A DNA stretch of 64,000 bases from NCBI RefSeq assembly GCF_014873875.1, contig NZ_JADBEM010000001.1, positions 5,518,001 to 5,582,000 of the forward strand, given 5' to 3'. Each line of letters opens with the position of its first letter. Position 1 is the first letter of the stretch. The notes beneath the pieces were generated by a model. That model had not been told where the DNA came from. It did no database searches and was given only the letters and a program-made list of their open reading frames with translations. Positions 14,967 to 63,044 of this stretch are shown in pieces. The translations under genes were made by a program, and so were the position numbers. The DNA is from Actinopolymorpha pittospori. Its GTDB lineage: Bacteria > Actinomycetota > Actinomycetes > Propionibacteriales > Actinopolymorphaceae.

Positions 14967-14974
14967 GGCTCGCC

Positions 14975-15850: not shown

Positions 15851-16527
15851 TGATCACGACCTCGAACAAGCAGGGGTATCACAATCCACTGCGGTCGGTC
15901 GCCGACCTCGACGGCTGGATCGCCGAGGGACCGGTCGCCGTGACCGCCGTCAATGACGCGGTCGAGTTGAGCAGTTCCGCCGACGAAGCCCGGGTGGGCG
16001 ACCACGCCCATTGGACGCTGTGGTGCCCAGAGATTTTCGGCGATCGGATCAGAATCGGCTGGGAATTCCAGCCGGTACGAGAGCCCGGACTGGCGATGAT
16101 CTTCTTCGCCGCCACCGGCACGTCCGGTCGAGACTTGTTTGATGCCAGTCTGCCGCCGCGCAACGGGTACTACCCGCAGTACCACTCCGGCGAGGTGCAA
16201 GCCCTGCATCTGTCGTACCTGCGACACAAGCAACCCGACGAACGGACGTTTCGAACGTGCAACGTCCGCAAGAGCCCTGGGTGCCATCTCGTTGCCCAAG
16301 CCGCCGACCCGCTACCGCCAGCCGAGGACGCGCAGCACTTCTACCGGTTGGAGTTGATCAAGGACCGAGCGGACGTCGCGTTCTCGATCAACGACCTGCC
16401 AGTGCTTCGCTGGCACGACGACGGAGCACGGGGCGGCGGCCACTACGGCGGCGGTCGCATCGGGTTCCGGCAGATGAGCCCATTGGTCGCGCGATACCGC
16501 TCGCTCGACGTCAGGGTGCTGCCCTAG
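15850..16527 (+). CDS. yesU: YesU-like DUF1961 protein
   Basis: 225 residues; the ATG at 15850 overlaps the ytcP stop as TGATG. The fold is a predicted beta-jelly-roll concanavalin-like lectin/hydrolase (DUF1961). Conserved stretches include HWTLWCPEIFGDRIRIGWEF, GEVQALHLSYLRHK and GGGRIGFRQMSPLVARYRSL. No signal peptide is present, so it acts in the cytoplasm. B. subtilis YesU lies in the rhamnogalacturonan cluster, and its biochemical role is undefined. Co-expression here supports a role in processing imported pectic fragments. Confidence 0.82.
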   Translation: MITTSNKQGYHNPLRSVADLDGWIAEGPVAVTAVNDAVELSSSADEARVGDHAHWTLWCPEIFGDRIRIGWEFQPVREPGLAMIFFAATGTSGRDLFDASLPPRNGYYPQYHSGEVQALHLSYLRHKQPDERTFRTCNVRKSPGCHLVAQAADPLPPAEDAQHFYRLELIKDRADVAFSINDLPVLRWHDDGARGGGHYGGGRIGFRQMSPLVARYRSLDVRVLP

Positions 16528-16562
16528 CCGACTACCCCTCCACTATCGAAAGGCCCGAATCT

Positions 16563-17882: not shown

Positions 17883-17920
17883 TCCATCGACTGTTGCGCT
17901 GTCGTTCGAAGGAGAAGCCG

Positions 17921-24599: not shown

Positions 24600-24648
24600 C
24601 CTCAATCCGTGGACCGGGTGAGTGGGCCCTCGGCGCGGTAGCAGGGAA

Positions 24649-24714
24649 AGTGCCTTCTGGATCGGGAGAATCTGGAGTGTCGAAGTCCTGATCCAACCCG
24701 ATCCAAAAGGCACT
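24649..24714 (+). promoter_or_regulatory. stem-loop ahead of IS1380-B transposase start
   Basis: AGTGCCTTCTGGATCGGG (24649-24666) and CCCGATCCAAAAGGCACT (24697-24714) form a long imperfect stem ending 4 bp before the GTG start. In read-through mRNA it would mask the ribosome site, a known way for IS elements to limit transposase expression. The same structure occurs at 44254-44319. Confidence 0.65.
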
Positions 24715-24718
24715 GGTA

Positions 24719-26134: not shown

Positions 26135-26273
26135 AACTACCCACCCGCCACCAAGGCCCGACCGGAGACCAAAGGAAAGCTGGGCAGACCAGCAGCCCCC
26201 GCCTGCCCACCCACCACCAACCACGAGCGACCCGCAACCAAAACCATCAACCCAGCGAGTCCACGGATTGAGG

Positions 26274-26765
26274 CTTAGTCCTGAGGTGACGCCCGGCTTC
26301 AGCGGCGAGGGTGGCGTACTCAAGGACCTTGCGGACGAGCAGGCGATCGGTGACGCGGACCTGCTCGCCGTTCATCTGGGCTGGGAACCAAGACTGGATC
26401 CGGTTCAGTTGTCGGCCTCCAGTGGGCTCGGGCTTGATCGGGTCCTGCGTGCCCTCGTCTGTCTTGGTGGGGCCGGCCGGGTTGGTTTTGACCTCGCGGC
26501 GTCGAGCTATTTTCACCGGGAGCTGCCGTATGACAGCGACATGATTCGGGGCATGCACCCCCGGCTTCGTGAGGCCAGCGCACTCGCCGAGGTCGGCGCG
26601 GTGCGTCGCGTGCGAGGGGGATTCGAGGTGAAGACGGAGGTGACCCATCGGGTCCGGTTGGACCGCAGCCCGCCGACGTGTACCTGCCGATGGTGGGGCA
26701 AGCACCAGGGACAACGCGGTCCCTGCAAGCATGTGCTGGCTGCCGAGCTGATCGAGGGGTCATGA
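26274..26765 (+). pseudogene. SWIM zinc-finger protein gene, 3' fragment
   Basis: Continues the gene broken at 24599: LSPEVTPGFSGEGGVLKDLA, then SYFHRELPYDSDMIRGMHPR, ending with the SWIM zinc ligands CTCRWWGKHQGQRGPCKHVL (CXC...CXH). It overlaps the next gene by 4 bp (ATGA), so the two were translationally coupled. A truncated protein starting at an internal codon could still carry the zinc finger. SWIM domains bind DNA or protein. Confidence 0.8.
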
Positions 26766-44111: not shown

Positions 44112-44204
44112 TCATGTGACCGGAGCCAACTCGTGGCCGAGGGGCTGCTCGCAGACCAGTCGACAAGGCCGAAACCCGCCGAGTGGACAGCGAGGGCCAC
44201 TGAG

Positions 44205-45878
44205 CCTCAATCCGTGGACCGGGTGAGTGGGCCCTCGGCGCGGTAGCAGGGAAAGTGCCTTCTGGATCGGGAGAATCTGGAGTGTCTAGGTCCTGATCCA
44301 ACCCGATCCAAAAGGCACTGAGAGTGAAACTACCGTACGGGTGGTCGCGGGCCACGCCGGTGTTCGATGATCAGAACCTGGTGTCGTGTGCGGGCCTGGT
44401 GCCGGTGATGGCGTTGGCCGAGCGGGCGGGCCTGTCGGAGCTGGTGGACGAGCGGGTCGCGATCCGGACCACGACGGTGAGGTCGGCAGCGGTGAACCCG
44501 GCGGGCAAGGTGACATCGATCATCGCGGGGATGGCTGCCGGCGCGGACTGTATCGACGATCTGGATGTGATCCGCTCTGGTGGGATGCGGCGGCTGTTCG
44601 GCGGGGTGTATGCGCCGGCGACGCTGGGCCAGTTTCTGCGGGAGTTCACCCACGGCCACTGCATGCAGTTGGCGTCGGTCGCGCGGGCGCATCTGGTCAA
44701 CCTTGTCCAGGCCAGCGGGCTGCTGCCCGGTATCGAGGATCAGGTGTTCATCGACATCGACTCACTCCTACGCCCGGTTTATGGGCATGCCAAGCAGGGC
44801 GCGAGCTTCGGGCACACCAAGATCGCCGGCCGGCAGGTGCTGCGCCGGGGCTTGTCACCGCTGGCGACCACGATCAGCACCAGCCAGGGCGCGCCGGTGG
44901 TGGCCGGGATCCGGCTCCGCGCCGGACGGGCCGCCTCGGGCAAGGGTGCGGCGAGCATGGTGGCCGAAGCGATCGCCACCGCCCGTGTCGCCGGCGCCAG
45001 CGGGCAGATCCTGATGCGGGGCGACTCGGCGTATGGCAACCACGCCGTGGTCGCCGCGTGTGTGAAAGCAGGGGCGCGGTTCTCGGTGGTGCTGACCAAG
45101 AACCCCGCAGTCACCGCCGCGATCGCCTCCATCCCCGACGACGCCTGGACACCGGTGCACTACCCCGGCGCGGTCACCGATCCCGACACCGGTGAGTTGA
45201 TCTCCGACGCCGAGGTCGCCGAGACGGAGTTCACCGCGTTCACCTCCACCAAACACCCGGTCACCGCCCGGCTGATCGTGCGCAGGGTCCGTGACCGAGC
45301 CCACGACCAGGCCGGCGATCAGGAGCTGTTCCCGGTATGGCGTCACCACCCGTTCTTCACCAACAACACCGAACCCACCGCGCAGGCTGACATCACCCAC
45401 CGCCGGCACGCGATCATCGAAACCGTGTTCGCCGACCTGATCGACGGACCACTCGCACACCTACCCTCAGGCCGGTTCGCCGCCAACAGCGCCTGGGCGA
45501 TCTGCGCAGCCATCACCCACAACCTGCTCCGCGCCGCCGGCACCCTCACCAGCCCCCGCCACGCCGCCGCCCGCGGCGCGACGCTGCGCCGCCACATCGT
45601 CACCGTCCCCGCCAGGATCGCCCGCCCACAGCGCCGGCCCGTCCTGCACCTGCCCGAGCACTGGCCCTGGGCCAAACAGTGGAAAACCCTGTGGCACAAC
45701 GTGTTCCGCCCCGCAACCGGCCCGCCACGCGTCGCCTGAAACTAGCCACCCGCCGTCAAGGCCCGACCGGAGACCAAAGGAAAGCTGGGCAGACCAGCAG
45801 CCCCCGCCTGCCCACCCACCACCAACCACGAGCGACCCGCAACCAAAACCATCAACCCAGCGAGTCCACGGATTGAGG
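44205..45878 (+). mobile_element. IS1380-family insertion sequence, type B copy 2
   Basis: 1674 bp, same length and ends as 24600-26273 (CCTCAATCCGTGGAC at 44205-44219, complement ending at 45878). The 5-bp duplication CTGAG flanks it (44200-44204, 45879-45883). The stem-loop ahead of the transposase start is at 44254-44319. Confidence 0.93.
44324..45739 (+). CDS. IS1380-family transposase, type B copy 2
   Basis: 471 residues from GTG 44324, collinear with the protein at 24719-26134 and differing by fewer than 20 substitutions (for example DERVAIRT versus SSRVAIRT). The DDE residues are retained. Confidence 0.92.
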   Translation: MKLPYGWSRATPVFDDQNLVSCAGLVPVMALAERAGLSELVDERVAIRTTTVRSAAVNPAGKVTSIIAGMAAGADCIDDLDVIRSGGMRRLFGGVYAPATLGQFLREFTHGHCMQLASVARAHLVNLVQASGLLPGIEDQVFIDIDSLLRPVYGHAKQGASFGHTKIAGRQVLRRGLSPLATTISTSQGAPVVAGIRLRAGRAASGKGAASMVAEAIATARVAGASGQILMRGDSAYGNHAVVAACVKAGARFSVVLTKNPAVTAAIASIPDDAWTPVHYPGAVTDPDTGELISDAEVAETEFTAFTSTKHPVTARLIVRRVRDRAHDQAGDQELFPVWRHHPFFTNNTEPTAQADITHRRHAIIETVFADLIDGPLAHLPSGRFAANSAWAICAAITHNLLRAAGTLTSPRHAAARGATLRRHIVTVPARIARPQRRPVLHLPEHWPWAKQWKTLWHNVFRPATGPPRVA

Positions 45879-45883
45879 CTGAG

Positions 45884-47926: not shown

Positions 47927-48099
47927 GACAAGGCGGCCCGCCCCAAGCTCGGTCTTCACCCGGAGCGCGCGCTGGCTAACGCTTTCCGTGAAGCGATTCG
48001 ACACGAATAGCGGCCCTGACCGAATAGGGTCAGGAAGGTTCGGACAGTGAGACGTGCGTGCCGCGTGGTGGATTCGTCATGCAGGATGCCGTGGTATGG

Positions 48100-48356
48100 C
48101 TGCCCGCAGCGACCTCATCTCTGACGGGGCCAACTTTCGCACCCCGTGGCTCTGGGACCACATCGTGCTCGCCCGCACCGACGACCTGTTCGGGACCGTC
48201 GACGGGCAGACCCTCGCGGAGGCAGCTGAACCCACGGGCAGGAGCCCTTCCTCGCTCGGCCTCGGCCTGTGTAGGGAGGGTGGCAACCGCGTACAGGTGG
48301 TCCTCCGGTACCGCACGGAGGTGGACATGCGTACGTTCCTCCGCTACGACCACGCG
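48100..48356 (+). pseudogene. N-acyl-D-amino-acid deacylase (amidohydrolase) fragment
   Basis: The frame encodes PWLWDHIVLARTDDLFGTVD, GQTLAEAAEPTGRSPSSLGL and VVLRYRTEVDMRTFLRYDHA. This is the segment of D-aminoacylases that follows the metal-binding barrel (compare GRTLAELA...DDMRTFL). The N-terminal HxH metal site and the C-terminal part are missing. It lies about 80 bp before the D-serine-dehydratase-like gene, and a deacylase releasing D-amino acids would fit that context. It may mark a deletion at the head of the operon. Confidence 0.65.
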
Positions 48357-48433
48357 GGCGGCTGGCCCGGGTCGAGGAAGGACGGCGATCAGCAGACCGA
48401 CGCCCGACCGGGCCAGGTCATCCGGGCAGGCCG

Positions 48434-49696
48434 ATGACCAACCAGCCGATGCCGGATGACTGGCAGATCGACTGGCGCTGCAAGGGTTTCCCGCCCATCG
48501 ACCTGTCGGCCCGCGACGTTCCGTCGGCCGGGTGGCGGTTGCACGAGGACTTCAGCACTCCCATCGCCGCGATCAGGGAGAGCGCGCTGGCCTTCAACCT
48601 GGCCCGGATGCGCGACTTCTGCGCCGAACGCGGCGTCGAACTCGCCCCGCACGGGAAGACGACAATGTCGCCGGAGCTGATTCGACGGCAGCTCGACCAC
48701 GGTGCCTGGGGCATGACGGCGGCGACCGCCTGGCAGGCCCGCGCGATGACGAGGTTTGGGGTACGTCGGATCCTCGTCGCCAACGAGTGTCTGGACCCGG
48801 CCGGGCTGCGCTGGCTGGGCGCACACCTGCGAGACGCCCTGGGCACGGAGATCAGCTGTTTCGTCGACTCGGTCGCCGCCGTCACAGCGATGCGGGACGT
48901 GCTCGCGGGCGTTCCGGGAGCTCCGCCGGTGCCGGTGCTGGTGGAGGTCGGCCTCGTCGGCGGTCGCTGCGGCGCCCGGACAGCGGCCGAGGCGGTCGAG
49001 GTGGCAGCGGCTGTCGCGGCGGCGCCCGAACTCGAGCTGGTCGGAGTGGCCGGGTTCGAGGGCGTGGTCGGCGGGTCCCGTGAGAAGGGGGTGGTGGCGC
49101 GGGTCGAGGAGTTTCTGCGCATGCTGCGCCGTACGGCGCAGGAGCTGATCGCGCGCGGATCGTTCCCGGCCGACCGTCCCGTGATCCTCTCCGCCGGCGG
49201 CAGCGCCTTCTTCGACCTTGTGGTGGAGGTCCTCACCCGCGACCGGTCGCGGTACGGCGTTCCCGTCGAGGTGGTTCTGCGGTCGGGCTGCTACCTCGTC
49301 CACGACCACGGCGCCTACCAGGACAGCTCGCCGTTCGCAGCCGACCGGGGATCGGCGTTCCGACCCGCGCTGGAGGTCTGGAGCAGGGTGCTGTCCTGCC
49401 CGGAGCCGGGTCTCGCGTTGACGGACGCCGGGAAGCGCGACATGTCGACCGACGGGCGCCTGCCGCTGGTCCTGCGGAGGCTCCGGCACGGAACGCCCGC
49501 GCCCGTCTCCGCGACTGTGCAGGCGGTGAACGACCAGCACGCCTACCTGCGCTACGACGTACCCGATGACCTCAGGGTCGGCGATCTGGTCTGTTTCGGC
49601 ATCTCCCATCCCTGTACGACCTTCGACAAGTGGCGGGCCATAACGCTCGTCGACGACGACCACCGCGTGACCTCTGTGATCCGTACCTCCTTCTGA
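48434..49696 (+). CDS. D-serine dehydratase/D-threonine aldolase-like PLP enzyme (fold III)
   Basis: 420 residues. Alanine-racemase-type barrel with the PLP lysine in APHGKTTMSPEL (Lys75), a second-domain metal pair His392/Cys394 in GISHPCTTFDKW as in DSD1-type zinc enzymes, and the phosphate-binding ILSAGGS (251-257). Members split or deaminate D-serine, D-threonine or beta-hydroxy-aspartate in the cytoplasm. It is the first complete gene of a seven-gene cluster, all on the plus strand with short gaps. It is preceded by a D-aminoacylase fragment, so D-amino-acid use is plausible but unproven. Confidence 0.87.
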   Translation: MTNQPMPDDWQIDWRCKGFPPIDLSARDVPSAGWRLHEDFSTPIAAIRESALAFNLARMRDFCAERGVELAPHGKTTMSPELIRRQLDHGAWGMTAATAWQARAMTRFGVRRILVANECLDPAGLRWLGAHLRDALGTEISCFVDSVAAVTAMRDVLAGVPGAPPVPVLVEVGLVGGRCGARTAAEAVEVAAAVAAAPELELVGVAGFEGVVGGSREKGVVARVEEFLRMLRRTAQELIARGSFPADRPVILSAGGSAFFDLVVEVLTRDRSRYGVPVEVVLRSGCYLVHDHGAYQDSSPFAADRGSAFRPALEVWSRVLSCPEPGLALTDAGKRDMSTDGRLPLVLRRLRHGTPAPVSATVQAVNDQHAYLRYDVPDDLRVGDLVCFGISHPCTTFDKWRAITLVDDDHRVTSVIRTSF

Positions 49697-49719
49697 CGTC
49701 CCGAACGGAACGGTCCCTT

Positions 49720-51216
49720 ATGCCGATGCGACTGGCGGTCCTGGGCTTCAGCCACGAGGCGAACACCTTCGCGCCGGTGCCAGCGACGCTGGATCAGTGG
49801 CGGCGTGCCGGCATCCTGGAGGGCGAGCGGATCCGCGACGTTTACGAGGCGTCCCGGACGAGCGTGGCGGGCTTTCTCGCATACGGTGCCGAGGCGCACG
49901 GCGTGGAGTTGATTCCACTCGTGTACGCGCGGATCACGCCTATGGGTCCGAGTACGAGTGAGGCCCACGAGCACCTGGTCACCCGCATGGTGGCGAGTCT
50001 TGTGGACCGCGGTCCCTGGGACGGTGTCCTCCTGCCGATCCACGGCGCTGCCGTCGCGGAGGGATGTCCGGACGCCGACGGCGACCTGATCCGGCGGGTG
50101 CGCGGGATCGTCGGACCCGACGTACCGATCGGGGCGACTCTCGACCTGCACGCGAACGTGTCGCGCACCATGGTGGACCACCTCGACGTGGTGACGGTCT
50201 ATCAGACCAACCCCCACGTCGACGCCTACGAGCAGGCGCTCGCGTGTGCGCGGCTGCTGGGCCGGACTATCCGCGCGGAGATCCGGCCACGGCTGGCCCT
50301 GGTCACGCCGCCGCTGGCCGTCACCATCGTGCGGCAGGGCACCGACGACGAGCCGATGGCGAGCCTGCTCGCGGTGGCCCGGTCGGAGGAGGCGCGCCCT
50401 GGGGTTCTGTCGGTCAGTGTGGTCGAGGGGTTCCCGTACGCCGATGTGCCGGAGATGGGGATGTCGTTCCTCGCCGTGGCAGACAGGGACGATGCCATCG
50501 CCCGCGCGGCTGCGGACCGGGTCGCACGGGCGGCCTGGGAGATGCGCGCGGAGTTCGTCGGCGAGGCGGTGCCGGTGGATGAGGCGCTATTCCGGGCCGC
50601 GGCCGCGCTGGCCGGTCCGGTCGTGCTCCTCGACATCGGCGACAACGTGGGCGGCGGGAGTCCCGGCGACTCCACCCACATCCTGCATGCCGCCCGACGG
50701 CTGGGGGTGCGGGGACTGGCGCAGTTGCTGACCGACCCGGTGGCGGTGTCACGCTGCGCGGAGGCCGGCGTAGGCGGCCGGGTGTCGCTGGACGTCGGCG
50801 GCCGGACCGACGACCGGCACGGCACACCGCTCGCCGTGACCGGGGTGGTGACAGCCGTGACGGACGGACGGTTCGAGGATCCGACGCCCACACATGGTGG
50901 CGTGCGCTCCTACGACATGGGACCCACGGCCGGTCTCCGGACCGACGACGGCTTCGACCTCGTGCTCACCTCCGTCGCGGAGGCGACCCACAGCCAGGAA
51001 CAGTTCCGGCTGGTCGGAGTCGAGCCGCGCGAGTGTCCCGTCATCGTCGCCAAGGGCGTGCACTCACCGCGTGCGGGCTTCGAGCCCATTGCCGCCGAAC
51101 TGATCCAGGTCGCGACGCCGGGATCGACCAGTGCCGACCTGTCCACCTTCCGCTACGCCCGTCGCCGGCGCCCGATGTTCCCGTTCGAGCCGACCACCCA
51201 GTGGTCGGCTCGCTGA
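49720..51216 (+). CDS. M81-family (MlrC-like) metallopeptidase
   Basis: 498 residues from ATG 49720, 23 bp after the previous gene. The MlrC N-domain has GFSHEANTFAPV (His12, Glu13), LLPIHGAAVAEG, GATLDLHANVS and YQTNPHVDAYE, which supply the zinc ligands. The C-domain starts near VVLLDIGDNVGGGSPGDST. MlrC from microcystin degraders cleaves a linear peptide, but most relatives lie in catabolic clusters with unknown amide or peptide substrates. No signal peptide. It is likely to act on an imported amide-linked compound. Confidence 0.88.
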   Translation: MPMRLAVLGFSHEANTFAPVPATLDQWRRAGILEGERIRDVYEASRTSVAGFLAYGAEAHGVELIPLVYARITPMGPSTSEAHEHLVTRMVASLVDRGPWDGVLLPIHGAAVAEGCPDADGDLIRRVRGIVGPDVPIGATLDLHANVSRTMVDHLDVVTVYQTNPHVDAYEQALACARLLGRTIRAEIRPRLALVTPPLAVTIVRQGTDDEPMASLLAVARSEEARPGVLSVSVVEGFPYADVPEMGMSFLAVADRDDAIARAAADRVARAAWEMRAEFVGEAVPVDEALFRAAAALAGPVVLLDIGDNVGGGSPGDSTHILHAARRLGVRGLAQLLTDPVAVSRCAEAGVGGRVSLDVGGRTDDRHGTPLAVTGVVTAVTDGRFEDPTPTHGGVRSYDMGPTAGLRTDDGFDLVLTSVAEATHSQEQFRLVGVEPRECPVIVAKGVHSPRAGFEPIAAELIQVATPGSTSADLSTFRYARRRRPMFPFEPTTQWSAR

Positions 51217-51253
51217 CGGGCGTCGCTGCCGGCCGAGACGAAGGAGTTTCGAG

Positions 51254-52906
51254 ATGACGCAGGGCGAGATCAGCCGACGCGGGTTCCTGCGCGGAGTCGG
51301 CGGTGCGGCGTTGGTCGCCGGAGGCTCCGCGGCCGTAGGCGGGTGTGGGGGAGGCGACGGCCTCGGCCAGGGAGGTGGCGCGCGGGCGGGGAGCGACGCG
51401 GCGGTACGCCTGCCCGCGTATGCACCGAAGACCGCCGTCGAGGCGGACCTTCCGGCGTTGCCCAACGGCACACCGGGTGCTTTGCTCCGCTATCCCGCCG
51501 CACCGAAGCGGATGTACGAAGGTCCGCCCGCGCACGGGGGCACCATCGACGTCCTCAAGATGATCGACGGCGCTCCACCGCCGCCGGTCCAGCGCAACCC
51601 GTTTTGGCAGCAGCTGAACAAGCGGGTCGGCGCCGAACTCCAGCTCAACAACGTGATCGCGTCCGACTACTCCAACAAGCTGGCCACCCTGCTGGCCAGT
51701 GGGGACCTCCCGGACCTGGTTCAGCTCCCGACCAACGTCCCGCACCTTCCCGACGTGCTGGCCAAGGAGTTCCAGGACCTGAGCGAGTGGGTGAGCGGCG
51801 ACGCGGTGAAGAACTACACCGGCCTCCCTGCGATGTCGGAGGTGTCCTGGAAGAACGTCGCCTTCAACGGCGGCATCTGGGGCGTGCCCTGGCAGTTGGG
51901 CCTGCCCGCCTCGGTGCTGGAGATCCGCCAGGACCTGGTGGAGGAGAAGGGCCTCACCGGTGAGCTCCACGACGGACAGGACTTCCTCGACCTGTGCGCC
52001 GCCCTGACGGACCCGGACCATCAGCGGTGGGCGATCGGAACACCCTCGACAGCGCTCAACATCGTCCGGGAGATGGTGGGCGTCCCCAACAACTGGAAGC
52101 AGGTCGACGGCGAGTTCACCAGCATGTACGAGACGGAGGAGTACCGCCGGGCGCTCGACATCATCGCGTCGCTGTGGAAGAAGGGCTACATCATCCCGGA
52201 CTCGATGAACTCCACCGCGCCGATCAGTGACTGGTTCGGCAGCGGCAGGGTCGCGATGAGCGCGGGCGGTTACACGAACTGGGCCCTCTACATCACCGCA
52301 AACAAGCCGACGAACCCGAAGTTCACGATGGGATGTCTCGTCCCGCCGAAGTGGGAGGGCGGCGGCCAGGCAGCCCACTGGGTCGGCAACGGGATGTACA
52401 CCTTCACGGCGGTCAGGAAGGCGAGCAAGGCGCGCGTCGAGGAGCTGTTGCGGGTGCTGGACTGGTTCGCCGCGCCCTTCGGGTCGGAGGAGTACACGTT
52501 CCGCCGCTACGGCGTACCCGGCCGCGACTACACGGTGGTGAAGGGCGAACCCGCCGTCACCCGCACGGGCACCAACGAGGTCCAGAACATGGCGATCGGC
52601 TACGTCGCCACCTGCCCGTTGCTGCTCTACATCCCCGGCCAGCCCGAGGCGACCAGGGACGAATACGACGCGCTCAGCGCGCTCATGAAGGTCACCGTCG
52701 CCAACCCCACCGTGGGGCTGTTTTCCGACTCCGCGCTCACCGCCGGCCTCACCAGCGAGAACAAGCTGCTGGACCTGCAGAACGGCATCATCTTCGGCCG
52801 CGAACCGCTGTCCGCCTGGGACGAGGGTGTCCGATCCTGGCGGTCCGGCGGCGGCGACCAGGTGCGATCCGAGTACGAGAAGGCGTTCGCGGCCGCGAAC
52901 AAGTAG
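51254..52906 (+). CDS. Tat/lipoprotein extracellular solute-binding protein
   Basis: 550 residues from ATG 51254, with AAGGAG upstream. Twin-arginine motif SRRGFLRGVGG plus lipobox VGGC (Cys31), so it is exported by Tat and lipid-anchored. The fold is family 1 sugar-binding; FWQQLNKRVGAELQLNNVIA and NGGIWGVPWQLGLPAS resemble LplA-type binding proteins. No permease or ATPase genes are in this cluster. It must pair with a transporter encoded elsewhere, perhaps LplB/YtcP at 13998-15850. Confidence 0.9.
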   Translation: MTQGEISRRGFLRGVGGAALVAGGSAAVGGCGGGDGLGQGGGARAGSDAAVRLPAYAPKTAVEADLPALPNGTPGALLRYPAAPKRMYEGPPAHGGTIDVLKMIDGAPPPPVQRNPFWQQLNKRVGAELQLNNVIASDYSNKLATLLASGDLPDLVQLPTNVPHLPDVLAKEFQDLSEWVSGDAVKNYTGLPAMSEVSWKNVAFNGGIWGVPWQLGLPASVLEIRQDLVEEKGLTGELHDGQDFLDLCAALTDPDHQRWAIGTPSTALNIVREMVGVPNNWKQVDGEFTSMYETEEYRRALDIIASLWKKGYIIPDSMNSTAPISDWFGSGRVAMSAGGYTNWALYITANKPTNPKFTMGCLVPPKWEGGGQAAHWVGNGMYTFTAVRKASKARVEELLRVLDWFAAPFGSEEYTFRRYGVPGRDYTVVKGEPAVTRTGTNEVQNMAIGYVATCPLLLYIPGQPEATRDEYDALSALMKVTVANPTVGLFSDSALTAGLTSENKLLDLQNGIIFGREPLSAWDEGVRSWRSGGGDQVRSEYEKAFAAANK

Positions 52907-52941
52907 GACCCGACCCAGTCCGGAAGGATGGAGCAGGCGAG

Positions 52942-53871
52942 ATGTTCTGGGGACACTTCCTCTACCTCGGCGTCAACATGTGGAGCGACCGTCCACCGAA
53001 GTTCGTCGAGGAGCTCACGTTCGACTACGAGGTGTGGGAGGAGGTCACCGCGAAGATGTCGGCCGACGGCCTCGACCTGCTGGTCGTCGACCTCGGCGAC
53101 GGCGTCCGCTACGAGAGCCACCCGGAGATCGCGGTCCGGAACGCCTGGAGCCCGCAGCGGCTCCGGGAGGAACTCGCGAGGTTGCGCGCCCTCGGCATCG
53201 AGCCGATCCCCAAACTGAACTTCAGCACCGCCCACGACGCCTGGCTTCGGGAGTACGGTCGGATGGTCTCGACGCCGCGCTACTACGAGGTGTGTGCCGA
53301 CCTGCTCGCGGAGGTCGCCGAGCTCTTCGACCGGCCGAGGTTCGTCCACATCGGCATGGACGAGGAGACCGCACACCACCAGCGCACCTTCGACTACTCC
53401 GTCGTACGCCAGAACGACCTGTGGTGGCACGACCTGGTCTTCCTCGCCGAGCAGGTCGAACGACACGGCGCCCGGCCCTGGATCTGGTCCGACTACGCCT
53501 GGCACCATCCGGACCTGTTCTACGAGCGGATGCCCCGACGGATCCTGCAGAGCAACTGGTACTACGGCGAGTCCTTCGAACCCCCGGCAGGCGGCCGACC
53601 GCGGGTGCTGGAGGAGGCGGAGGGCTTCTTGACCTATCCGGACCTGGAGGCGCACGGTTACGACCAAATGCCCACCGGTAGCACCCACTCGGACCTGGCG
53701 AATTTCGGCCGCACCGTCGAGTACTGCACCGAACACATCGACGGCTCGCGGCTGCTCGGGTTCCTGCAGGTGCCCTGGCGGCGGACGGTCGCGGAGTTTC
53801 GCGACATCCACCTGACCGCCGTCGACCTGGTGCGGGAAACCAAGGAGAAGTACGACGATGCGAAGCGGTAA
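52942..53871 (+). CDS. GH20-like TIM-barrel protein
   Basis: 309 residues from ATG 52942. A barrel starting GHFLYLGVNMWSDRP, with GIEPIPKLNFSTAHDAWL and the pair Asp140-Glu141 in FVHIGMDEETAHHQ. These resemble the catalytic Asp-Glu strand of family 20 hexosaminidases (HIGxDE). The small GH20b domain and a signal peptide are absent, so it is cytoplasmic and shorter than classical members. It probably hydrolyses or binds an imported glycoside. It overlaps the next gene by 14 bp. Confidence 0.7.
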   Translation: MFWGHFLYLGVNMWSDRPPKFVEELTFDYEVWEEVTAKMSADGLDLLVVDLGDGVRYESHPEIAVRNAWSPQRLREELARLRALGIEPIPKLNFSTAHDAWLREYGRMVSTPRYYEVCADLLAEVAELFDRPRFVHIGMDEETAHHQRTFDYSVVRQNDLWWHDLVFLAEQVERHGARPWIWSDYAWHHPDLFYERMPRRILQSNWYYGESFEPPAGGRPRVLEEAEGFLTYPDLEAHGYDQMPTGSTHSDLANFGRTVEYCTEHIDGSRLLGFLQVPWRRTVAEFRDIHLTAVDLVRETKEKYDDAKR

Positions 53872-54670
53872 GGCCGCCGTCGCGGTGCGGACCGACGGCC
53901 GGGCCGACGCCAGCGGGTCGGCGTACTCCATTCGCGCGGTGCAGCGGGTCTGCGAGATCCTGGATCTGATCCAGGAGAGCCCGGACGGATTCTCCCTGGC
54001 GGAGGTGGCCGAGGTGACCGCGCTGCCCAAGAGTTCGGCCTACCGCTACCTCGCCACCCTGGAGGAACGCCGTTACGTCCAACGCGATCCGGGCAGCGGG
54101 TTGTTCAGGATCGGCTCGGCGTTCCTGCCCCTGCAGTCCCAGCAGCTGCGGCTGCTTGCCGACCAGGCCCGCCCGCATCTGGAGCGGCTGCGCGACCGCT
54201 TCGAGGAGACGTTGAACCTCGGCCTGCTGGACGGCAACCAGGTGTCTTACGTCGAGATTGTGGAGAGTCCGAAGTCCGTTCGGCTCGCCGCGCGGGCCGG
54301 CGACCGGGACCCGTTGCACTGTACGGCGTTGGGCAAGGCGATCGCCTCGACCCTCGCCCCGGAACGCGTGCGGGCGATCCTCGCCGCCGAGGGGATGCCG
54401 CGGCGTACTGAGGCGACGATCACCGACGTCGAGACCTATTTCGCCGTTCTCGAGGAGACCCGGGCACGGGGCTACGCACTCGACGCGGGGGAGAACGAGG
54501 AGGACGGCACCTGCCTGGCCGTTCCCCTGACCGGGATCGGGCTTGCCGCCTCGATCAGCCTGAGCGCGCCGTCCTCGCGTTTCCCCGGTGAGCGGGTCCG
54601 CGAGGTGGCCGCCGCGCTCACCGCGGCGGCGTCCCAGTTGACCATCGACATGACGGGGGCGAGCAGATGA
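53858..54670 (+). CDS. IclR-family transcriptional regulator
   Basis: 270 residues. N-terminal HTH (about 25-85: SIRAVQRVCEILDLIQESPD, PKSSAYRYLATLEERRYVQR) and the C-terminal effector domain (about 95-265, with DPLHCTALGKAIAS and GYALDAGENEEDGTCLAVPL). Being embedded in the operon with overlaps on both sides, it probably controls this cluster in response to a small catabolite. Confidence 0.93.
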   Translation: MRSGKAAVAVRTDGRADASGSAYSIRAVQRVCEILDLIQESPDGFSLAEVAEVTALPKSSAYRYLATLEERRYVQRDPGSGLFRIGSAFLPLQSQQLRLLADQARPHLERLRDRFEETLNLGLLDGNQVSYVEIVESPKSVRLAARAGDRDPLHCTALGKAIASTLAPERVRAILAAEGMPRRTEATITDVETYFAVLEETRARGYALDAGENEEDGTCLAVPLTGIGLAASISLSAPSSRFPGERVREVAAALTAAASQLTIDMTGASR

Positions 54671-55938
54671 CTAGGAACCACACACGGTCCGCGGAGCTGG
54701 CCGCCCGCGCGGCAGGCCTGACGCCGGGCGGCGTGCACTCGAACGTCCGGCTCGCCGGACCCAGGGTCTTCTTCGAACGCGGCGAGGGCGCCTGGCTGTG
54801 GGACGTCGACGGCAACGACTACGTCGACTACCTGCTCGGCCAGGGACCGAACTTCCTCGGTCACGCGCCGCGTGCCGTCAACGACGCGGTCGCCGCCGCG
54901 ATGCGCAGAGGATCCGTCTTCGGCGCCCAGCACGCGCTGGAGAACGACGCGAGCGAGCTCTTCCTGCAGGCCGTGGGGTGGGCGGACCGGGTTCGCTTCG
55001 GCGTGTCCGGTACGGAGTCCGTCCAGCTGGCCCTGCGGCTCGCACGAGCCGCGACAGGCCGGAGGCGGTTCGTACGATTCGCTGGGCACTACCACGGCTG
55101 GCTCGACAACGTACTGGTCAGGACTGTCGACGAGACGACCACACCGGCGAGCGCCGGCCAGCTCGACCAGTTCGACCAGTTCCACGTGCTTCCCTACAAC
55201 GACCTCGCCGCCGTCGAGACACTTCTCGCCGAGCACGCCGACGACTTGGCGGCGATCCTGCTCGAGCCCGTCATGTGCAACAGCGGCGTCGTCCCGCCGC
55301 GGGACGGGTATCTGCGGGGGCTGCGCGACCTGTGCGACCGGCACAGCGTCGTGCTGATCTTCGACGAGGTCATCACCGGCTTCCGGATCGCGCCGGGCGG
55401 AGCCGCGGACCGGTACGGCGTCGCCCCCGACCTCGCGACGTACGGCAAGGCCATGGCCGGTGGCTGGCCGGTCGCCGCCGTCGCCGGGAGGGCGGAGCTG
55501 ATGGACCCGATCGGGACCGGCGAGGTGAACCACTCCGGCACCTTCAACGCGTCCGTGCCCGCGTGTGCGGCGGTCGCCGCGACGCTCCGACAACTGCGCG
55601 ACGATCCGCCGTACGACCGGCTGGAGACACACGGCGGGAAGCTCGTCGACGGGTTGCGCGAGCTCGGGACGCGTCACGACGTGCCACTGCGCGCGCAGGG
55701 ACTGCCGATGGCCTTCCACATGTCGTTCGGCGACCCGAGCCCGATCCACGACCTAGGTCAGCTCGACCGGCTCGACCTGGAGCGCTACGCGCGGTTCGCG
55801 CACGTGCTCGTGGACTACGGCGTGTGGGTCGCACCGCGCGGGATCTGGTACATCTCCGCCGCGCATGGTGAGAAGGAACTCGTTGCCGTGCTCGAACGCG
55901 TCGACGCCGCCCTCGCCGCTGGCGGAGGCGACCGGTGA
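54667..55938 (+). CDS. class III aminotransferase, glutamate-1-semialdehyde aminomutase-like
   Basis: 423 residues; 4-bp overlap with the IclR gene. PLP-binding lysine Lys261 in LATYGKAMAGGWP, cofactor aspartate Asp233 in LIFDEVITGFR, N-terminal LTPGGVHSNVRLAGPRVFF. It is related to HemL but sits in a catabolic operon without other tetrapyrrole genes. It is more likely to transaminate an amino-sugar or amino-acid-derived substrate than to make 5-aminolevulinate. Confidence 0.87.
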   Translation: MTRNHTRSAELAARAAGLTPGGVHSNVRLAGPRVFFERGEGAWLWDVDGNDYVDYLLGQGPNFLGHAPRAVNDAVAAAMRRGSVFGAQHALENDASELFLQAVGWADRVRFGVSGTESVQLALRLARAATGRRRFVRFAGHYHGWLDNVLVRTVDETTTPASAGQLDQFDQFHVLPYNDLAAVETLLAEHADDLAAILLEPVMCNSGVVPPRDGYLRGLRDLCDRHSVVLIFDEVITGFRIAPGGAADRYGVAPDLATYGKAMAGGWPVAAVAGRAELMDPIGTGEVNHSGTFNASVPACAAVAATLRQLRDDPPYDRLETHGGKLVDGLRELGTRHDVPLRAQGLPMAFHMSFGDPSPIHDLGQLDRLDLERYARFAHVLVDYGVWVAPRGIWYISAAHGEKELVAVLERVDAALAAGGGDR

Positions 55939-56024
55939 CTGGTCGCCTGCCTCGCGCATCCTGCGGGACGCACGTGATCCGATCAGCCAGCCGACACTCA
56001 CGTCGACCTTTTGGGAGCCCAGCC

Positions 56025-58253
56025 ATGCCTTCGACCACGTCGCCCGAACCGTCCGTCTCCGGTCGGGGAATCAGTCGGCGCACCCTCCTCGGTGGAATCG
56101 GTGCCGCCGCTGCGATGTCCGGGCTCCCCGCCGCGCCCGCGGGTGCGGCGACGCCCCCATCGGCCGCCGGCGCTGTTGGTGTCGTCGTGCAGAACGAGTC
56201 GGCGGGTCGGGGCATGCCGCTCGTCGGCTACAACACCGGGCACTACATGCCGGGCAGCAACACCTCGGCGTGGCTCGAGTACTCGCGGGTCAACGCCGTC
56301 CGCTTCTTCGCCTCCTTCACGCAGTGGGCACCGGACGAGGCGTTCGACGGGGGAGCGGGCATCGAGAGCGTGCAGGACTTCGACGCGCGCAAGGCGCAGT
56401 TGCGCAGCGATCCGGAGCGGAGTCCGTTCCTGCGGTGGGACATCCTCGAGGACCTCTTCGAGAACCAGGTCTACAGCGATACCAACCACTACCAGCTCAA
56501 CTACCAGGTGGCAGAGCTCCAACGACTCGGCGTCGCCCCGATCATGGAGGCGGTGGAACTCGCTTGGAACCGCCCCTGGTCCGGGCTGTGGCTGCAGTGG
56601 CAGAAACACTATGCGTTCACCTACCACCTGGCTCGCCACTACGACGTCGAGCGGTACAACTTCCTCAACGAGCCGGATCACCCGAGCGCAGCCGGCGACA
56701 TCGTCGACCAGGCCGTCTACGTCCGCGGGCTCCAGCTCGCCTCCGACGCGATCCGGTCGGCGATCGCGGATGTCAACTCCCGCTACGGGAAGTCGCTGCG
56801 CGCCATCGTGCAGGCGCCGGTCATCACCCACGCATCCAGTTCCAAGGGTGACGACCACATGGACGCCGACAGCGACGCTGACCCTCGCGACGACGAGCAC
56901 GGCTGGGGCGAGATCTCGCTGCGAAACCTGCGCACGGACTATCACGGGGAGACTGTCGAGCATGACATCTTCGACGTGTTCGACACCCATCAGTACAACA
57001 AGACCGCGCCGACCTACGAGTACGAGATCGCGATGATGCGGTCGAAGATGCGGATGTACACGCCGACGGGTGTCGCACTGCCGATCGTCTACAGCGAGTT
57101 CAATCGGCGTAACACCGGCGCCTTCGAGACCAGCGGCGACGACCTCGACACGCCGGCCATCTACTGTGACCTCGCGGGCATCTGGGCGGCGGCCGCAGCA
57201 GGACAGGTCGAGGGCATGATCGCCTTCAAGTTCCAGAACACCATGCGGGCGAATGGTATCCCGTACGGGACCGGCTTCTATTACGTCGCGAACGAGGGCC
57301 GGTACGACATCCACGGCGTGACCAAGGCTGGCGAGGTCAACCGGCTGTTCGCCAAGGGCTTCAAGGGCGACGCCAAGGAACTGTTGACGGTGGCCGCCGA
57401 CGACGGCCGAATCGTGCTCGCCGCCCACGACCGGGAGGCGCGCCGCTGCGCGATCTGGCTGCCCCATCCCACCGGCACGCCCGCGGAGTCCGTGACCCTC
57501 GACCTCCGCGCGCTGCCGGTTGCGCGGCGGGGGAGCGAGGTCGTGGTGGAGGAGGTCAGCCCGACACACAGTGGTGGCATCGTGCTGAAGGCGCCACTGC
57601 CGGGCTCTGGACGTCTCACCCTCGAACAGCCCGCCGACTCGGTCTGGTTGGTGACTGTCACCGCTCCCGGCCCGATCCATCGAGTCGAGGCGCATGTCGA
57701 TGCCCACGTTCGAAGTGGTGGCGAAACCAGTGGTGGCGACATGCTTGGCGTGTCCTTACCCGCTGCCGGTGCGATCGGTGGGATCGGGACGGACGGCGCG
57801 ACCGGGGCGGAGGTCAGCTACCTCGCGTTCGACCTCGACCACCCGCCGGTGGAGGCCAGGCCGCCGCGCCAGGCGGTCCTCGAACTCTTCGGGTCGGGTG
57901 AGGACGCCGCGCCGTTCACCTTCACCGCGTACGTCGTCATCGACACGGCGTGGGTCGGGCAGGACCTGACCTGGGAGACCGCGCCCTACCTCGACCCGGA
58001 CGGAGTACGCGCGACGGAGGTCGGCACCACCCTGTTTCCGGCTGGCCAGGTGTCGCTGGAAGGCGCTCCCGGAACCGCCAGACTCGACGTGACGGATGCC
58101 CTGCGGCACGTCGATGGTGACGCGGTCGGGTTCCTGCTGATCCGGGAACGCCGTCGGGCCGAGGACAACGCCGATGACGGGCGACGTGGGGAGATCGCGT
58201 CCGTCCGCGCCGAGGAGTCGGAGCGCCGTCCCCGGCTCGTCCTGTCGTGGTGA
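56025..58253 (+). CDS. Tat-exported glycosidase-like protein with C-terminal beta domain
   Basis: 742 residues from ATG 56025. Tat signal ISRRTLLGGIGAAAAMSGLP, cleaved near AGAAT. Residues about 50-480 look like a clan GH-A-type barrel: FLNEPDHPSAAGD offers an Asn-Glu acid/base after strand 4, and IVYSEFNRRNTG a nucleophile glutamate after strand 7. A beta domain, then a DNRLRE/CBM96-like module (LDVTDALRHVDGDAVGFLLI), follow. I cannot assign a GH family. It is the only clearly exported enzyme of the cluster and would generate the ligand for the binding protein. Confidence 0.72.
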   Translation: MPSTTSPEPSVSGRGISRRTLLGGIGAAAAMSGLPAAPAGAATPPSAAGAVGVVVQNESAGRGMPLVGYNTGHYMPGSNTSAWLEYSRVNAVRFFASFTQWAPDEAFDGGAGIESVQDFDARKAQLRSDPERSPFLRWDILEDLFENQVYSDTNHYQLNYQVAELQRLGVAPIMEAVELAWNRPWSGLWLQWQKHYAFTYHLARHYDVERYNFLNEPDHPSAAGDIVDQAVYVRGLQLASDAIRSAIADVNSRYGKSLRAIVQAPVITHASSSKGDDHMDADSDADPRDDEHGWGEISLRNLRTDYHGETVEHDIFDVFDTHQYNKTAPTYEYEIAMMRSKMRMYTPTGVALPIVYSEFNRRNTGAFETSGDDLDTPAIYCDLAGIWAAAAAGQVEGMIAFKFQNTMRANGIPYGTGFYYVANEGRYDIHGVTKAGEVNRLFAKGFKGDAKELLTVAADDGRIVLAAHDREARRCAIWLPHPTGTPAESVTLDLRALPVARRGSEVVVEEVSPTHSGGIVLKAPLPGSGRLTLEQPADSVWLVTVTAPGPIHRVEAHVDAHVRSGGETSGGDMLGVSLPAAGAIGGIGTDGATGAEVSYLAFDLDHPPVEARPPRQAVLELFGSGEDAAPFTFTAYVVIDTAWVGQDLTWETAPYLDPDGVRATEVGTTLFPAGQVSLEGAPGTARLDVTDALRHVDGDAVGFLLIRERRRAEDNADDGRRGEIASVRAEESERRPRLVLSW

Positions 58254-61088: not shown

Positions 61089-63044
61089 ATGGACCACCAG
61101 TCGACGAGGCGTGATCTGCTCCGGGTAGGGGGGACTCTGGTCTTCGTCACGGCGACGGCGTCCGCCTGTGACCTGCTCTCGACCAACCCGTCGCGCTCGG
61201 GCCAGTCGGGGCGCGGTGCCGGGGGCGGTCCGAAACCGAAAGAGGCGCCGATGCTCGCTGACCTGGTGAAGCGGGGTGCCATCGATCCAGTGGAGAAGCG
61301 GCTACCGCCGAAGCCCGTCATCGTCCAGCCGAACGACCGGCCCGGTGTCTACGGTGGTGAGTGGCGACTCAACACGGTGGCCAGCGGCTATGGCACGGGC
61401 GCCACGCAGTACCAGATCGCGGGTTACGAGAACCTCGTGCGCTGGGATCCGACGTTCACCAAGATCATCCCGAACATCGCCGACAGCTATGAGATCAGCG
61501 CCGACAGCACCACGTACACGTTTCATTTACACAAAGGGATCAGGTGGTCCGACGGGCACCCGTTCACCGCCGCCGACATGGTCTTCGCGGTGCAAGACGT
61601 GATCATGAACACCGAACTCTCACCGATTCCACAGTTCGGCGAGATGTCAGCAGAGCAGCTCGACGACTACACGGTCCGGTTGACGTTCGCTGAGCCGAAC
61701 GGTGTGTTGATCCAGAACATCGTCACCCGCACCGGACTCGTCTTCACCGACAATCCGGCGCACTATCTCAAGCAGTTTCACAAGAAGTACAACCCGAACG
61801 TCAACGCGCTGGTGGAAAAAGAGAAGTTGGACGACTGGCTGGCGCTATTCAACCTGAAGGGTGGCGACTACAGCTTCGGGTCGAACGTCGACAAGCCCAC
61901 GCTTTACCCCTGGGTCTTGAAGAGCGTGTCCAACTCCCAAATCGTGGTGGAGCGGAACCCGTACTACTGGAAGGTCGACCCCGACGGCAGCCAGTTGCCG
62001 TACCTGGACCGGATCGTCTGGACGGTGGTCACGAACGAAGAGACGACGCTGCTGAAAACCGCTAACGGCGAGGTCGACTTCTCCTACGGGGATCCGAAGA
62101 ACAAACCCGTCCTGGCGCGGGGTCGTTCCCAGGGCGACTACCGGTTCTTCGATGCGGTCCCCGGGCACACCAGCGACGTATGCATTTACCCCAATCTCGC
62201 GCACAAGAATCCGGTGCTGCGCAAGATCTTCCAGAACAAGGACTTCCGCATAGGCCTCTCCTACGCCATCAACCGGCAGGAAATCATCGACGCCGTATTC
62301 CAGCGCCAGGGGGAACCGTGGCAGATCGCCCCGCGCAAGGAGTCGAGCTACTACGACCGCGAGATGGCCGAGCAGTACCTTGAGTACGACCCGGACCGGG
62401 CCAACGAATACCTCGACCGGGCATTCCCCGACAAGGATCCGGACGGCCGGCGGCTCGGGCCCGACGGCAAGCCCATCACGTTCAACATCGACGTGCATGG
62501 CGGAATCACGGAGTGGGTCGACACGATCGACCTCGTCGTGCGCTACTGGCGAAAGGTCGGCGTCAACGCACGCCTGAATAACATCAGCCCCGAACTGGCC
62601 GTGACTCGCGGCGAAGCCAACCAGCACGACATGGCGGTCTGGTCAGGCGAGGGTGGTCTGGATGCCGTCATCCTGATCAATCCGTACAACTACCTGCCGA
62701 TCCTCTCGCCGTACTCCTTCTTCGGGGTGCCATGGGTGGCGTGGTACGACAGTGACGGAAAGGAAGGCGAAAATCCGCCCACACCCGTCCGGCGGCAACT
62801 GCAGCTCTACGACGAGGCGCTGGCCACGTCCGACACCCAGCGCCAGCATGACCTGATGACCGAGATCTTGCACATCGCGAAGGAGGAGTTCTTCGGGATC
62901 GGTATAAGTGCGCCCACGAGTTCGTACGGGATCGTGAGCAACCGTACGCAGAACTGGGCGAAGCAGATGACCACCGGGACGGTGTGGGTCTACATGGACC
63001 CCGCGCCCAGCAACCCGTGCCAGTATTTCGTGGAAGAGCGCTGA
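61089..63044 (+). CDS. family 5 ABC transporter substrate-binding lipoprotein
   Basis: 651 residues from ATG 61089, with GAGAGGAG upstream; the GTG just before is an alternative. Twin-arginine-like TRRDLLRVGG and lipobox SAC (Cys27). The SBP_bac_5 signature appears as IPNIADSYEISADSTTYTFH and LHKGIRWSDGHPFTAADMVF. The family binds peptides, nickel or oligosaccharides; the nearest type is the oligosaccharide branch (YPWVLKSVSNSQIVVERNPY). No permease genes follow, so it is an orphan or its operon has been cut. Confidence 0.9.
   Translation: MDHQSTRRDLLRVGGTLVFVTATASACDLLSTNPSRSGQSGRGAGGGPKPKEAPMLADLVKRGAIDPVEKRLPPKPVIVQPNDRPGVYGGEWRLNTVASGYGTGATQYQIAGYENLVRWDPTFTKIIPNIADSYEISADSTTYTFHLHKGIRWSDGHPFTAADMVFAVQDVIMNTELSPIPQFGEMSAEQLDDYTVRLTFAEPNGVLIQNIVTRTGLVFTDNPAHYLKQFHKKYNPNVNALVEKEKLDDWLALFNLKGGDYSFGSNVDKPTLYPWVLKSVSNSQIVVERNPYYWKVDPDGSQLPYLDRIVWTVVTNEETTLLKTANGEVDFSYGDPKNKPVLARGRSQGDYRFFDAVPGHTSDVCIYPNLAHKNPVLRKIFQNKDFRIGLSYAINRQEIIDAVFQRQGEPWQIAPRKESSYYDREMAEQYLEYDPDRANEYLDRAFPDKDPDGRRLGPDGKPITFNIDVHGGITEWVDTIDLVVRYWRKVGVNARLNNISPELAVTRGEANQHDMAVWSGEGGLDAVILINPYNYLPILSPYSFFGVPWVAWYDSDGKEGENPPTPVRRQLQLYDEALATSDTQRQHDLMTEILHIAKEEFFGIGISAPTSSYGIVSNRTQNWAKQMTTGTVWVYMDPAPSNPCQYFVEER

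What the first reader, a model, noticed from the sequence alone, without database searches (positions are those of the whole stretch)
48100..58253. Unfamiliar catabolic cluster joining D-amino-acid, peptide and glycan enzymes
Seven packed genes (with 14-, 4- and near-zero-bp junctions around the IclR gene) combine a D-serine-dehydratase-like PLP enzyme, an MlrC/M81 peptidase, a Tat lipoprotein binding protein, a GH20-like barrel, an IclR regulator, a HemL-like aminotransferase and an exported glycosidase-like protein. A D-aminoacylase fragment sits at the head. Each family is known; the combination is not one I can match to a described pathway. A substrate with a glycosidic part and an amide-linked D- or hydroxy-amino acid would need all of these.
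Basis: partly seen in the sequence, partly recalled or inferred. Interest (0 to 1): 0.75.

Follow-up and report, generated by a model that had tools for sequence, protein, structure and literature searches.

The report
Conserved D-amino-acid catabolic gene module
An actinobacterium carries a compact set of breakdown genes whose core (a D-amino-acid lyase, an M81 metallo-amidase, an aminotransferase and their regulator) recurs together in other bacteria, which points to a conserved pathway of unknown substrate rather than a chance mix.

Summary
The seven genes are real and intact (+ strand, 48434-58253); a dead D-aminoacylase fragment lies just upstream (48069-48353). They are not one conserved unit. 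A core of four (D-serine-dehydratase-like DSD, M81, IclR, HemL-like aminotransferase AT3) plus the lost D-aminoacylase belongs to a recurrent module. M81 lies within 8 kb of AT3 in 20 of 33 actinobacterial AT3 loci; of 13 M81 places outside that set, 6 have AT3 within 1.5 kb. A 1.5-Mb genome keeps the set with a Dpp-type transporter, and a Microvirga plasmid has IclR-DSD-M81 near RidA-AT3-M81. Around the AT3-M81 core the deacylase/lyase pair has two forms, not seen together: D-aminoacylase/DSD, or AstE-like/PALP (presumably L-specific); the tree labels change at least twice. The GH20-like protein has a hexosaminidase fold without a Pfam match and joins the module only in some relatives. The binding protein and the exported glycosidase-like protein are not linked to it elsewhere. 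Best reading: breakdown of an N-acylated beta-hydroxy-amino acid or amino-sugar acid, chemically like the ong (oxidised chitin) pathway but not a member of it. Substrate and the roles of M81 and AT3 are inferred.

The parts
48069..48353 (+). Remnant of an N-acyl-D-amino-acid deacylase (D-aminoacylase) gene, middle part only: pseudogene
   Evidence: tblastn with four intact relatives, 47-62% identity over their residues ~297-409, E 1e-21 to 1e-24; intact 67% homologue elsewhere in the genome
48434..49696 (+). DSD: PLP fold-III D-serine-dehydratase-like lyase, 420 aa; Lys75 (PLP) and the His369/Cys394 pair (metal role recalled) present
   Evidence: PF14031, PF01168; 3gwq D-serine deaminase 276 bits with conserved HGKTT, DQHAYL and SHPC-TFDKW; residue numbers
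49720..51216 (+). M81/MlrC-type zinc metallo-amidohydrolase, 498 aa; zinc ligands E13, D142, H144, H166 conserved
   Evidence: PF07364, PF07171; alignment to MlrC 7ylq, ligands from PMC9982164 (passages)
51254..52906 (+). SBP: Tat-like lipoprotein solute-binding protein of an ABC importer, no permease genes beside it
   Evidence: PF13416; ATG 51254 with AAGGAG upstream and SRRGFLRG...GGC signal by eye; 23% identity to the protein at 17921-19438
52942..53871 (+). GH20L: single-domain protein with a GH20 hexosaminidase barrel, no signal peptide seen by eye; HxGxDEE with D140-E141
   Evidence: AF2 pLDDT 91; Foldseek and VIA-align: GH20 structures; D140, E141, E142 invariant in 31 of 31 aligned; no Pfam hit
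53858..54670 (+). IclR-family transcriptional regulator
   Evidence: PF01614, PF09339; 69-70% identical to the IclR of the D-form loci L093 and L096
54667..55938 (+). AT3: HemL/glutamate-1-semialdehyde-aminomutase-like class III PLP enzyme, Lys261
   Evidence: PF00202; below HemL cut-offs; 5i92 274 bits
56025..58253 (+). GHX: exported (Tat-like signal) protein with a glycosidase-like barrel and a C-terminal CBM96/DNRLRE-type domain; neighbour, not part of the conserved module
   Evidence: relatives in unrelated places; weak clan-A match of a poor model

Best explanation
The window holds a rearranged copy of a conserved catabolic module. Shown: a core of AT3 and M81, mostly with IclR, recurs with one of two deacylase/lyase pairs, either D-aminoacylase + DSD (often with RidA and SDR, sometimes SMP-30) or AstE-like deacylase + PALP-fold lyase; the window has the D form with its D-aminoacylase decayed. 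Inferred: a small N-acylated conjugate of a beta-hydroxy-alpha-amino acid, most simply an amino-sugar acid such as N-acetylglucosaminate or a glycoside of it, is bound by the SBP and imported. Inside the cell GH20L removes a beta-linked N-acetylhexosamine, and M81 opens an amide by zinc-assisted water attack. A D-aminoacylase (now perhaps the homologue at 4.35 Mb) takes off the N-acyl group. DSD eliminates ammonia to give a 2-oxo acid, as OngC turns glucosaminate into KDG. AT3 moves the remaining amino group, and IclR switches the set by substrate or product. None of these steps was tested directly; the substrate and the roles of M81 and AT3 are the weakest points.
For: AT3-centred: M81 in 20 of 33 loci, IclR 22, SDR 20, PALP 17, SMP-30 13, AstE-like 13, RidA of either cluster 11, DSD 4, D-aminoacylase 4 (18 genomes). 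M81-centred, +-1.5 kb: AT3 19 of 33; 20 of these 33 are the same places as AT3 loci, and of the other 13 six have AT3. Same set in L096 and L108, in the 1.5-Mb genome L197 with SBP5-DppBC, and across phyla in Microvirga L130. D and L pairs were not seen together (6, 17, both 0, neither 10 of 33; Fisher one-sided p 0.007, not corrected for kinship). On the AT3 tree and on the M81 tree starred branches force at least two label changes. The window's DSD is 57-64% identical to the four DSDs of the AT3 loci and 44% to the genome's other DSD. OngB/OngC/OngD/OngA precedent: a D-aminoacylase-family deacetylase, a DSD-like deaminase, RidA and GH20 on GlcNAc1A (PMC9537276, sections read). Catalytic residues intact.
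Against: No enzyme was assayed. 13 of 33 AT3 loci have no M81 in the stretch, and 10 have neither pair. All six D-form AT3 loci come from one genus (g304); outside it the D set was seen in L197 and partly L198 and Microvirga, whose DSD is only 39% identical. In the window RidA, SDR, SMP-30 and a working D-aminoacylase are missing, so the local pathway may be incomplete or decaying. GH20L is linked to AT3 within about 10 kb in only 2 of 6 other actinobacterial GH20L loci (L059, L140) and in 0 of 46 elsewhere, and the 1.5-Mb genome's stretch has no GH20L, so the amino-sugar part rests mainly on the ong analogy. The D-aminoacylase relative scores about equally with PpOngB (249 bits), N-acyl-D-glutamate deacylase (246) and D-aminoacylase (235), so its substrate is open. 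M81 and AT3 have no counterpart in ong.
Confidence: 0.5

Rival explanations
1. The core degrades N-acylated free D-amino acids or D-amino-acid peptides (for instance from cell-wall turnover); no sugar is involved, and GH20L and the binding protein joined by chance. M81 cleaves the peptide-like bond, D-aminoacylase and DSD process the D residue, AT3 transaminates the partner.
For: The transporter beside other copies is of the Dpp (dipeptide) type, in 8 of 33 AT3 loci and L197; the L197 stretch has no recognised glycosidase; MlrC, the one studied M81 enzyme that I found, cuts a peptide bond of linearised microcystin (PMC9982164, passages).
Against: SMP-30 lactonase-like genes in 13 of 33 AT3 loci and, by my reading, a Gfo/Idh-like gene in 4 (cluster c164); GH20L together with the D set in G663.
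Confidence: 0.3
2. The seven genes are a patchwork brought together by mobile elements and genome expansion, now decaying, without a joint function in this strain.
For: Pseudogene at its head, a DDE_Tnp_1_4 element at 44.2-45.9 kb with a near copy at 24.6-26.3 kb, missing RidA/SDR/lactonase, GHX and SBP not linked elsewhere, genome 10.6 Mb against 6.4-8.0 Mb in five others of the genus.
Against: All seven ORFs intact, two with overlapping starts, and strong codon bias; four of the seven belong to a module conserved outside the genus.
Confidence: 0.15
3. AT3 is an aminomutase or racemase rather than a transaminase, and the module interconverts amino acids so that either the D- or the L-specific pair can finish the job.
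For: AT3 is closest to glutamate-1-semialdehyde 2,1-aminomutase among solved chains; D and L pairs alternate around the same core.
Against: AT3 is below the HemL cut-offs (343 of 527 bits for TIGR00713); the same superfamily holds D-phenylglycine and beta-amino-acid transaminases.
Confidence: 0.15

Closest known systems
ong cluster, oxidative chitin (GlcNAc1A) utilisation of Pseudoalteromonas prydzensis (PMC9537276)
   Same: D-aminoacylase-family deacetylase, DSD-like PLP deaminase, RidA (in relatives of the window cluster) and a GH20 hexosaminidase in one inducible catabolic cluster
   Different: By the sections read, ong has no M81 or AT3 (one search finds neither word 'M81' nor 'aminotransferase'), an RpiR regulator, KdgK and SSS/TonB-type transporters; the window lacks KdgK, RidA and a working deacetylase and has an IclR regulator
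N-acyl-D-amino-acid deacylase + D-amino-acid deaminase gene pairs
   Same: Same two enzyme families, here as remnant + DSD; an intact pair of this kind sits at 7.61 Mb of the same genome
   Different: That pair has no AT3 or M81 within its 20-kb stretch (L157); its DSD is 44% identical to the window's
beta-hydroxyaspartate (Bhc) cycle
   Same: DSD and IclR score best in NCBIfam against BhcC and BhcR
   Different: Far below the cut-offs (108 of 690 and 166 of 350 bits)
mlr microcystin degradation (MlrC)
   Same: M81 family, zinc ligands conserved
   Different: 206 of 999 bits; no other mlr gene recognised among the Pfam/NCBIfam hits of the cluster

Membership tests
ong (GlcNAc1A) cluster | Working D-aminoacylase-family GlcNAc1A deacetylase (OngB) in the cluster | tested here: not met
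   Only a both-ends-truncated remnant at 48069-48353; an intact 67% homologue lies 1.2 Mb away
ong (GlcNAc1A) cluster | DSD-like fold-III PLP deaminase (OngC) | tested here: inconclusive
   Family met; no OngC sequence was available for a tree
ong (GlcNAc1A) cluster | RidA, KdgK and RpiR-type OngR in the cluster | tested here: not met
   None recognised among the gene calls at 44-64 kb; regulator is IclR
ong (GlcNAc1A) cluster | Chitin-active LPMO in the genome | not tested
   Genome not searched for it
GH20 | Match to a curated GH20 sequence model (Pfam) | tested here: not met
   No Pfam family up to E 10
GH20 | GH20 barrel fold and catalytic Asp-Glu pair | tested here: met
GH20 | Hexosaminidase activity | not testable with these tools
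   Needs an assay
Glutamate-1-semialdehyde aminomutase (HemL) | NCBIfam equivalog cut-off | tested here: not met
   TIGR00713 343 of 527 bits; NF000818 368 of 398
Microcystinase MlrC | NCBIfam cut-off | tested here: not met
   206 of 999 bits
Peptidase family M81 | Both M81 domains above cut-off and zinc ligands | tested here: met
   319 of 22.8 and 169 of 27.2 bits; E13, D142, H144, H166
beta-hydroxyaspartate aldolase BhcC | NCBIfam cut-off | tested here: not met
   108 of 690 bits
AT3-M81 module (defined here) | AT3 and M81 in one cluster with IclR and a deacylase/lyase pair | tested here: inconclusive
   AT3, M81, IclR and DSD present within 48.4-55.9 kb, but the deacylase only as a remnant; relatives

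The most novel reading that the evidence does not exclude
A widespread, undescribed catabolic pathway is built on an AT3-M81 core into which stereospecific cassettes (D-aminoacylase + DSD, or AstE-like + PALP lyase) are plugged according to the configuration of an N-acylated beta-hydroxy-amino acid or amino-sugar acid. It would give the M81 family a physiological role beyond microcystin and would be important enough to be kept in a 1.5-Mb genome.
Probability: 0.4. Interest if true: 0.75.

Novelty: new variant of a known kind. Interest (0 to 1): 0.58.

Why it matters
M81 metallopeptidases are widespread, but in the held library the only studied role that my searches turned up is microcystin breakdown. 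The recurrent coupling to a HemL-like aminotransferase, and the exchange of D- against L-type deacylase/lyase pairs around that couple, give testable functions to several orphan enzyme families at once, and to a GH20-fold family of which the window member meets no Pfam model although relatives occur in many phyla.

Tried and rejected
Rejected: a single conserved seven-gene unit (order not seen in the loci laid out; SBP and GHX unlinked); Bhc cycle and MlrC membership (scores far under cut-off); GH20L as the anchor of the system (46 loci without any core gene but one IclR). Led nowhere: plasmid search for GH20L and GHX (no match); GHX in 246 genomes of the phylum at E 1e-30 (own only); GHX structure (pLDDT 61, only 4 sequences), so its matches to GH39-type and other clan-A enzymes are weak; promoter scan; the neighbourhood of the intact D-aminoacylase at 4.35 Mb, which holds no recognised partner gene. 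Literature searches that listed no M81-aminotransferase pathway: (the last found no paper); papers listed there were seen as listings only. Read beyond listings: passages of PMC9608346 and PMC9982164, and the outline plus sections 8, 10, 12, 13, 17 of PMC9537276 and 9, 10 of PMC12017989. Position 292 of PpOngB (Ser there, Thr in D-aminoacylases by PMC12017989) appears as Ser in the D-aminoacylase of L096 by my count on the alignment; the Gln298 region was not aligned, so this test stayed open. Not done: a tree of DSD with OngC (no OngC sequence at hand).

Limits of the counts: gene calls come from a simple GC-frame caller of mine, labels from BLAST against clusters made. In 25 of the 33 AT3 loci no protein was scanned against Pfam or NCBIfam; cluster names rest on representatives, on annotated plasmid records and on my reading. 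Four of the 33 stretches are cut by contig ends. 29 of the 32 non-own M81 places were given as loci and counted, with 4. In searches only 6 and 3 candidates per genome were scored, so places may be missed. Most loci come from one family (f94), so the counts are not independent. My note 4 says 17 genomes for the AT3 loci; the right number is 18. The L-specificity of the AstE/PALP families is recalled.
Full report
What is there. The region holds seven intact + strand genes: DSD 48434-49696, M81 49720-51216, a Tat-like lipoprotein binding protein SBP 51254-52906, GH20L 52942-53871, IclR 53858-54670, AT3 54667-55938, and the exported GHX 56025-58253. Gaps are 23, 37, 35, -14, -4 and 86 nt. Codon positions show the expected bias in all seven (third-position GC 0.86-0.91). 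Pfam and NCBIfam name DSD (PF14031), M81 (PF07364, PF07171), SBP (PF13416), IclR and a class III aminotransferase close to, but below the cut-offs of, glutamate-1-semialdehyde aminomutase. GH20L has no Pfam match up to E 10.

The head of the cluster. Upstream of DSD, 48069-48353 translates into a piece 47-62% identical to residues about 297-409 of 518-535-aa D-aminoacylases found beside AT3 in four relatives; both ends are gone. It is a pseudogene. The same genome keeps an intact 67% homologue at 4.35 Mb without recognised partner genes, and a separate D-aminoacylase + DSD pair at 7.61 Mb whose DSD is 44% identical to the window's. A transposase element with 29-nt imperfect ends lies at 44.2-45.9 kb, with a near copy at 24.6-26.3 kb.

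Conservation of the core. In 97 genomes of the window's order, M81 relatives at E 1e-60 occur in 5 including the window. In the other four, IclR lies beside M81, and in three of them AT3 is the adjacent gene. A search with AT3 in 296 genomes of the class found 34 places in 19 genomes at E 1e-125, the window included; I fetched all 33 others (18 genomes, most of one family). Within about 8 kb: M81 in 20, IclR in 22, SDR in 20, PALP-fold lyase in 17, SMP-30 in 13, AstE-like deacylase in 13, DppB in 8, RidA of one or the other cluster in 11, DSD in 4, D-aminoacylase in 4, GH20L in 1; 13 have no M81. From the M81 side, 33 loci of +-1.5 kb (29 of the 32 non-own places plus 4) hold AT3 in 19. Twenty of these are the same places as AT3 loci; of the other 13, six have AT3 (the three, and L177, L187, L189, two of these at 42-44% identity), while L186, L188 and L194 have none of the labelled genes. 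As a control, 46 loci around GH20L relatives, none titled as an actinobacterium, hold no AT3, M81, DSD or D-aminoacylase hit. Locus L096 reads M81-RidA-DSD-D-aminoacylase-SDR-AT3-IclR on one strand; L108 SDR-SMP30-AT3-M81-RidA-DSD-D-aminoacylase. A 1.5-Mb genome (L197) reads DSD-RidA-SDR-D-aminoacylase-D-aminoacylase-M81-IclR-AT3-SBP5-DppB-DppC, on both strands, with AT3 at 46% identity to the nearest labelled copy. A Microvirga plasmid has IclR-DSD-M81 and, nearby, RidA-AT3-M81; a Halobaculum plasmid has a class III aminotransferase (35-37% to AT3), M81, RidA and IclR near a peptide-type ABC transporter. Other M81 plasmid loci that I opened carry a class III aminotransferase more loosely or not at all next to M81. 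In Arthrobacter sp. Helios an M81 gene and a D-serine ammonia-lyase gene with neighbouring numbers are both induced by PEG (PMC9608346, passages).

Two interchangeable pairs. D-aminoacylase or DSD occurs in 6 of the 33 AT3 loci (all in genus g304), AstE-like or PALP-fold genes in 17, both in none, neither in 10 (Fisher one-sided p 0.007, without correction for kinship). Trees of AT3 (40 rows) and M81 (31 rows) need at least two changes between the labels on well-supported branches, and one supported AT3 clade holds both. The AstE-like protein scores best against DoeB (91 of 403 bits) and the PALP protein against threonine synthases and dehydratases, EutB included. I read this as D- and L-specific versions of the same two steps, N-deacylation and elimination; the L-specificity is from family knowledge.

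GHX and SBP. GHX relatives at E 1e-5 occur in four other genomes of 245 in the order (78, 74, 39% identity and a fragment). The three full-length ones lie in unrelated neighbourhoods, so GHX looks like a native gene beside the module. Its model is poor (pLDDT 61) and matches clan-A glycosidases such as iduronidase and PslG weakly. No SBP homologue was found among the called genes of the 51 stretches; the only ABC permeases that I recognised in the window lie 35 kb away at 13998-15850 in a pectin-type operon.

How it works. The closest described chemistry is the ong pathway, where OngA (GH20) releases GlcNAc1A, OngB (D-aminoacylase family) deacetylates it and OngC (DSD-like) turns glucosaminate into KDG and ammonia, with a RidA protein needed for growth on GlcNAc1A (PMC9537276, sections 8, 10, 12, 13). 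SDR and SMP-30 genes beside the D form in relatives could make a sugar acid from an amino sugar, which fits. M81 and AT3 are extra: M81 has the four zinc ligands of MlrC and should cut an amide; AT3 keeps its lysine and should handle an amino group. I commit to breakdown of an N-acylated beta-hydroxy-amino acid or amino-sugar acid conjugate (0.5), with simple N-acyl-D-amino acids or D-peptides as the main rival (0.3). It is not filed as an ong cluster, since OngB, RidA, KdgK and OngR were looked for in the cluster and not found.

Verdict. The conserved part is DSD-M81-IclR-AT3 plus the lost D-aminoacylase, GH20L is a part-time partner, and SBP and GHX are local. I found no description of the pathway in the library searched.

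Noticed in passing
window 24600-26280 and 44200-45883: Two copies of an insertion element with a DDE_Tnp_1_4 transposase (459-471 aa) and imperfect 29-nt ends; mean column identity 93% over the aligned stretch, flanks included.
   Followed up: partly
window 13372-22083: Pectin/rhamnogalacturonan-type operon: DUF624, two ABC permeases, DUF1961, oligogalacturonate-lyase-like protein, a protein 23% identical to the cluster SBP, and a PcRGLX-like protein.
   Followed up: partly
window 61089-63044: Family-5 binding protein (SBP_bac_5) with no permeases recognised beside it; a 58% relative lies about 8.5 kb from the intact D-aminoacylase at 4.35 Mb.
   Followed up: no
window 42267-44111: Protein with a DUF3472 domain just upstream of the transposase.
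   Followed up: no
L059:10471-12117, L136:7879-9498, L137:7950-9491, L138:7862-9496, L139:7908-9476, L140:16368-18020: A protein of about 510-550 aa, with a Tat-like signal in several copies, sits directly before GH20L in 6 of 6 actinobacterial loci outside the window; the L059 copy has no Pfam or NCBIfam match at the limits used.
   Followed up: partly
L111, L113, L114, L117: A second AT3 branch (60-62% identical to the window's) sits with a fused E1 dehydrogenase and an acyl-CoA synthetase, and in three of the four loci with a ~400-aa protein whose L114 copy has no Pfam match.
   Followed up: no
L197 (G672:C22:66001-86000): A 1.5-Mb genome devotes some 16 kb to this module with two M81 and two D-aminoacylase genes.
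   Followed up: partly
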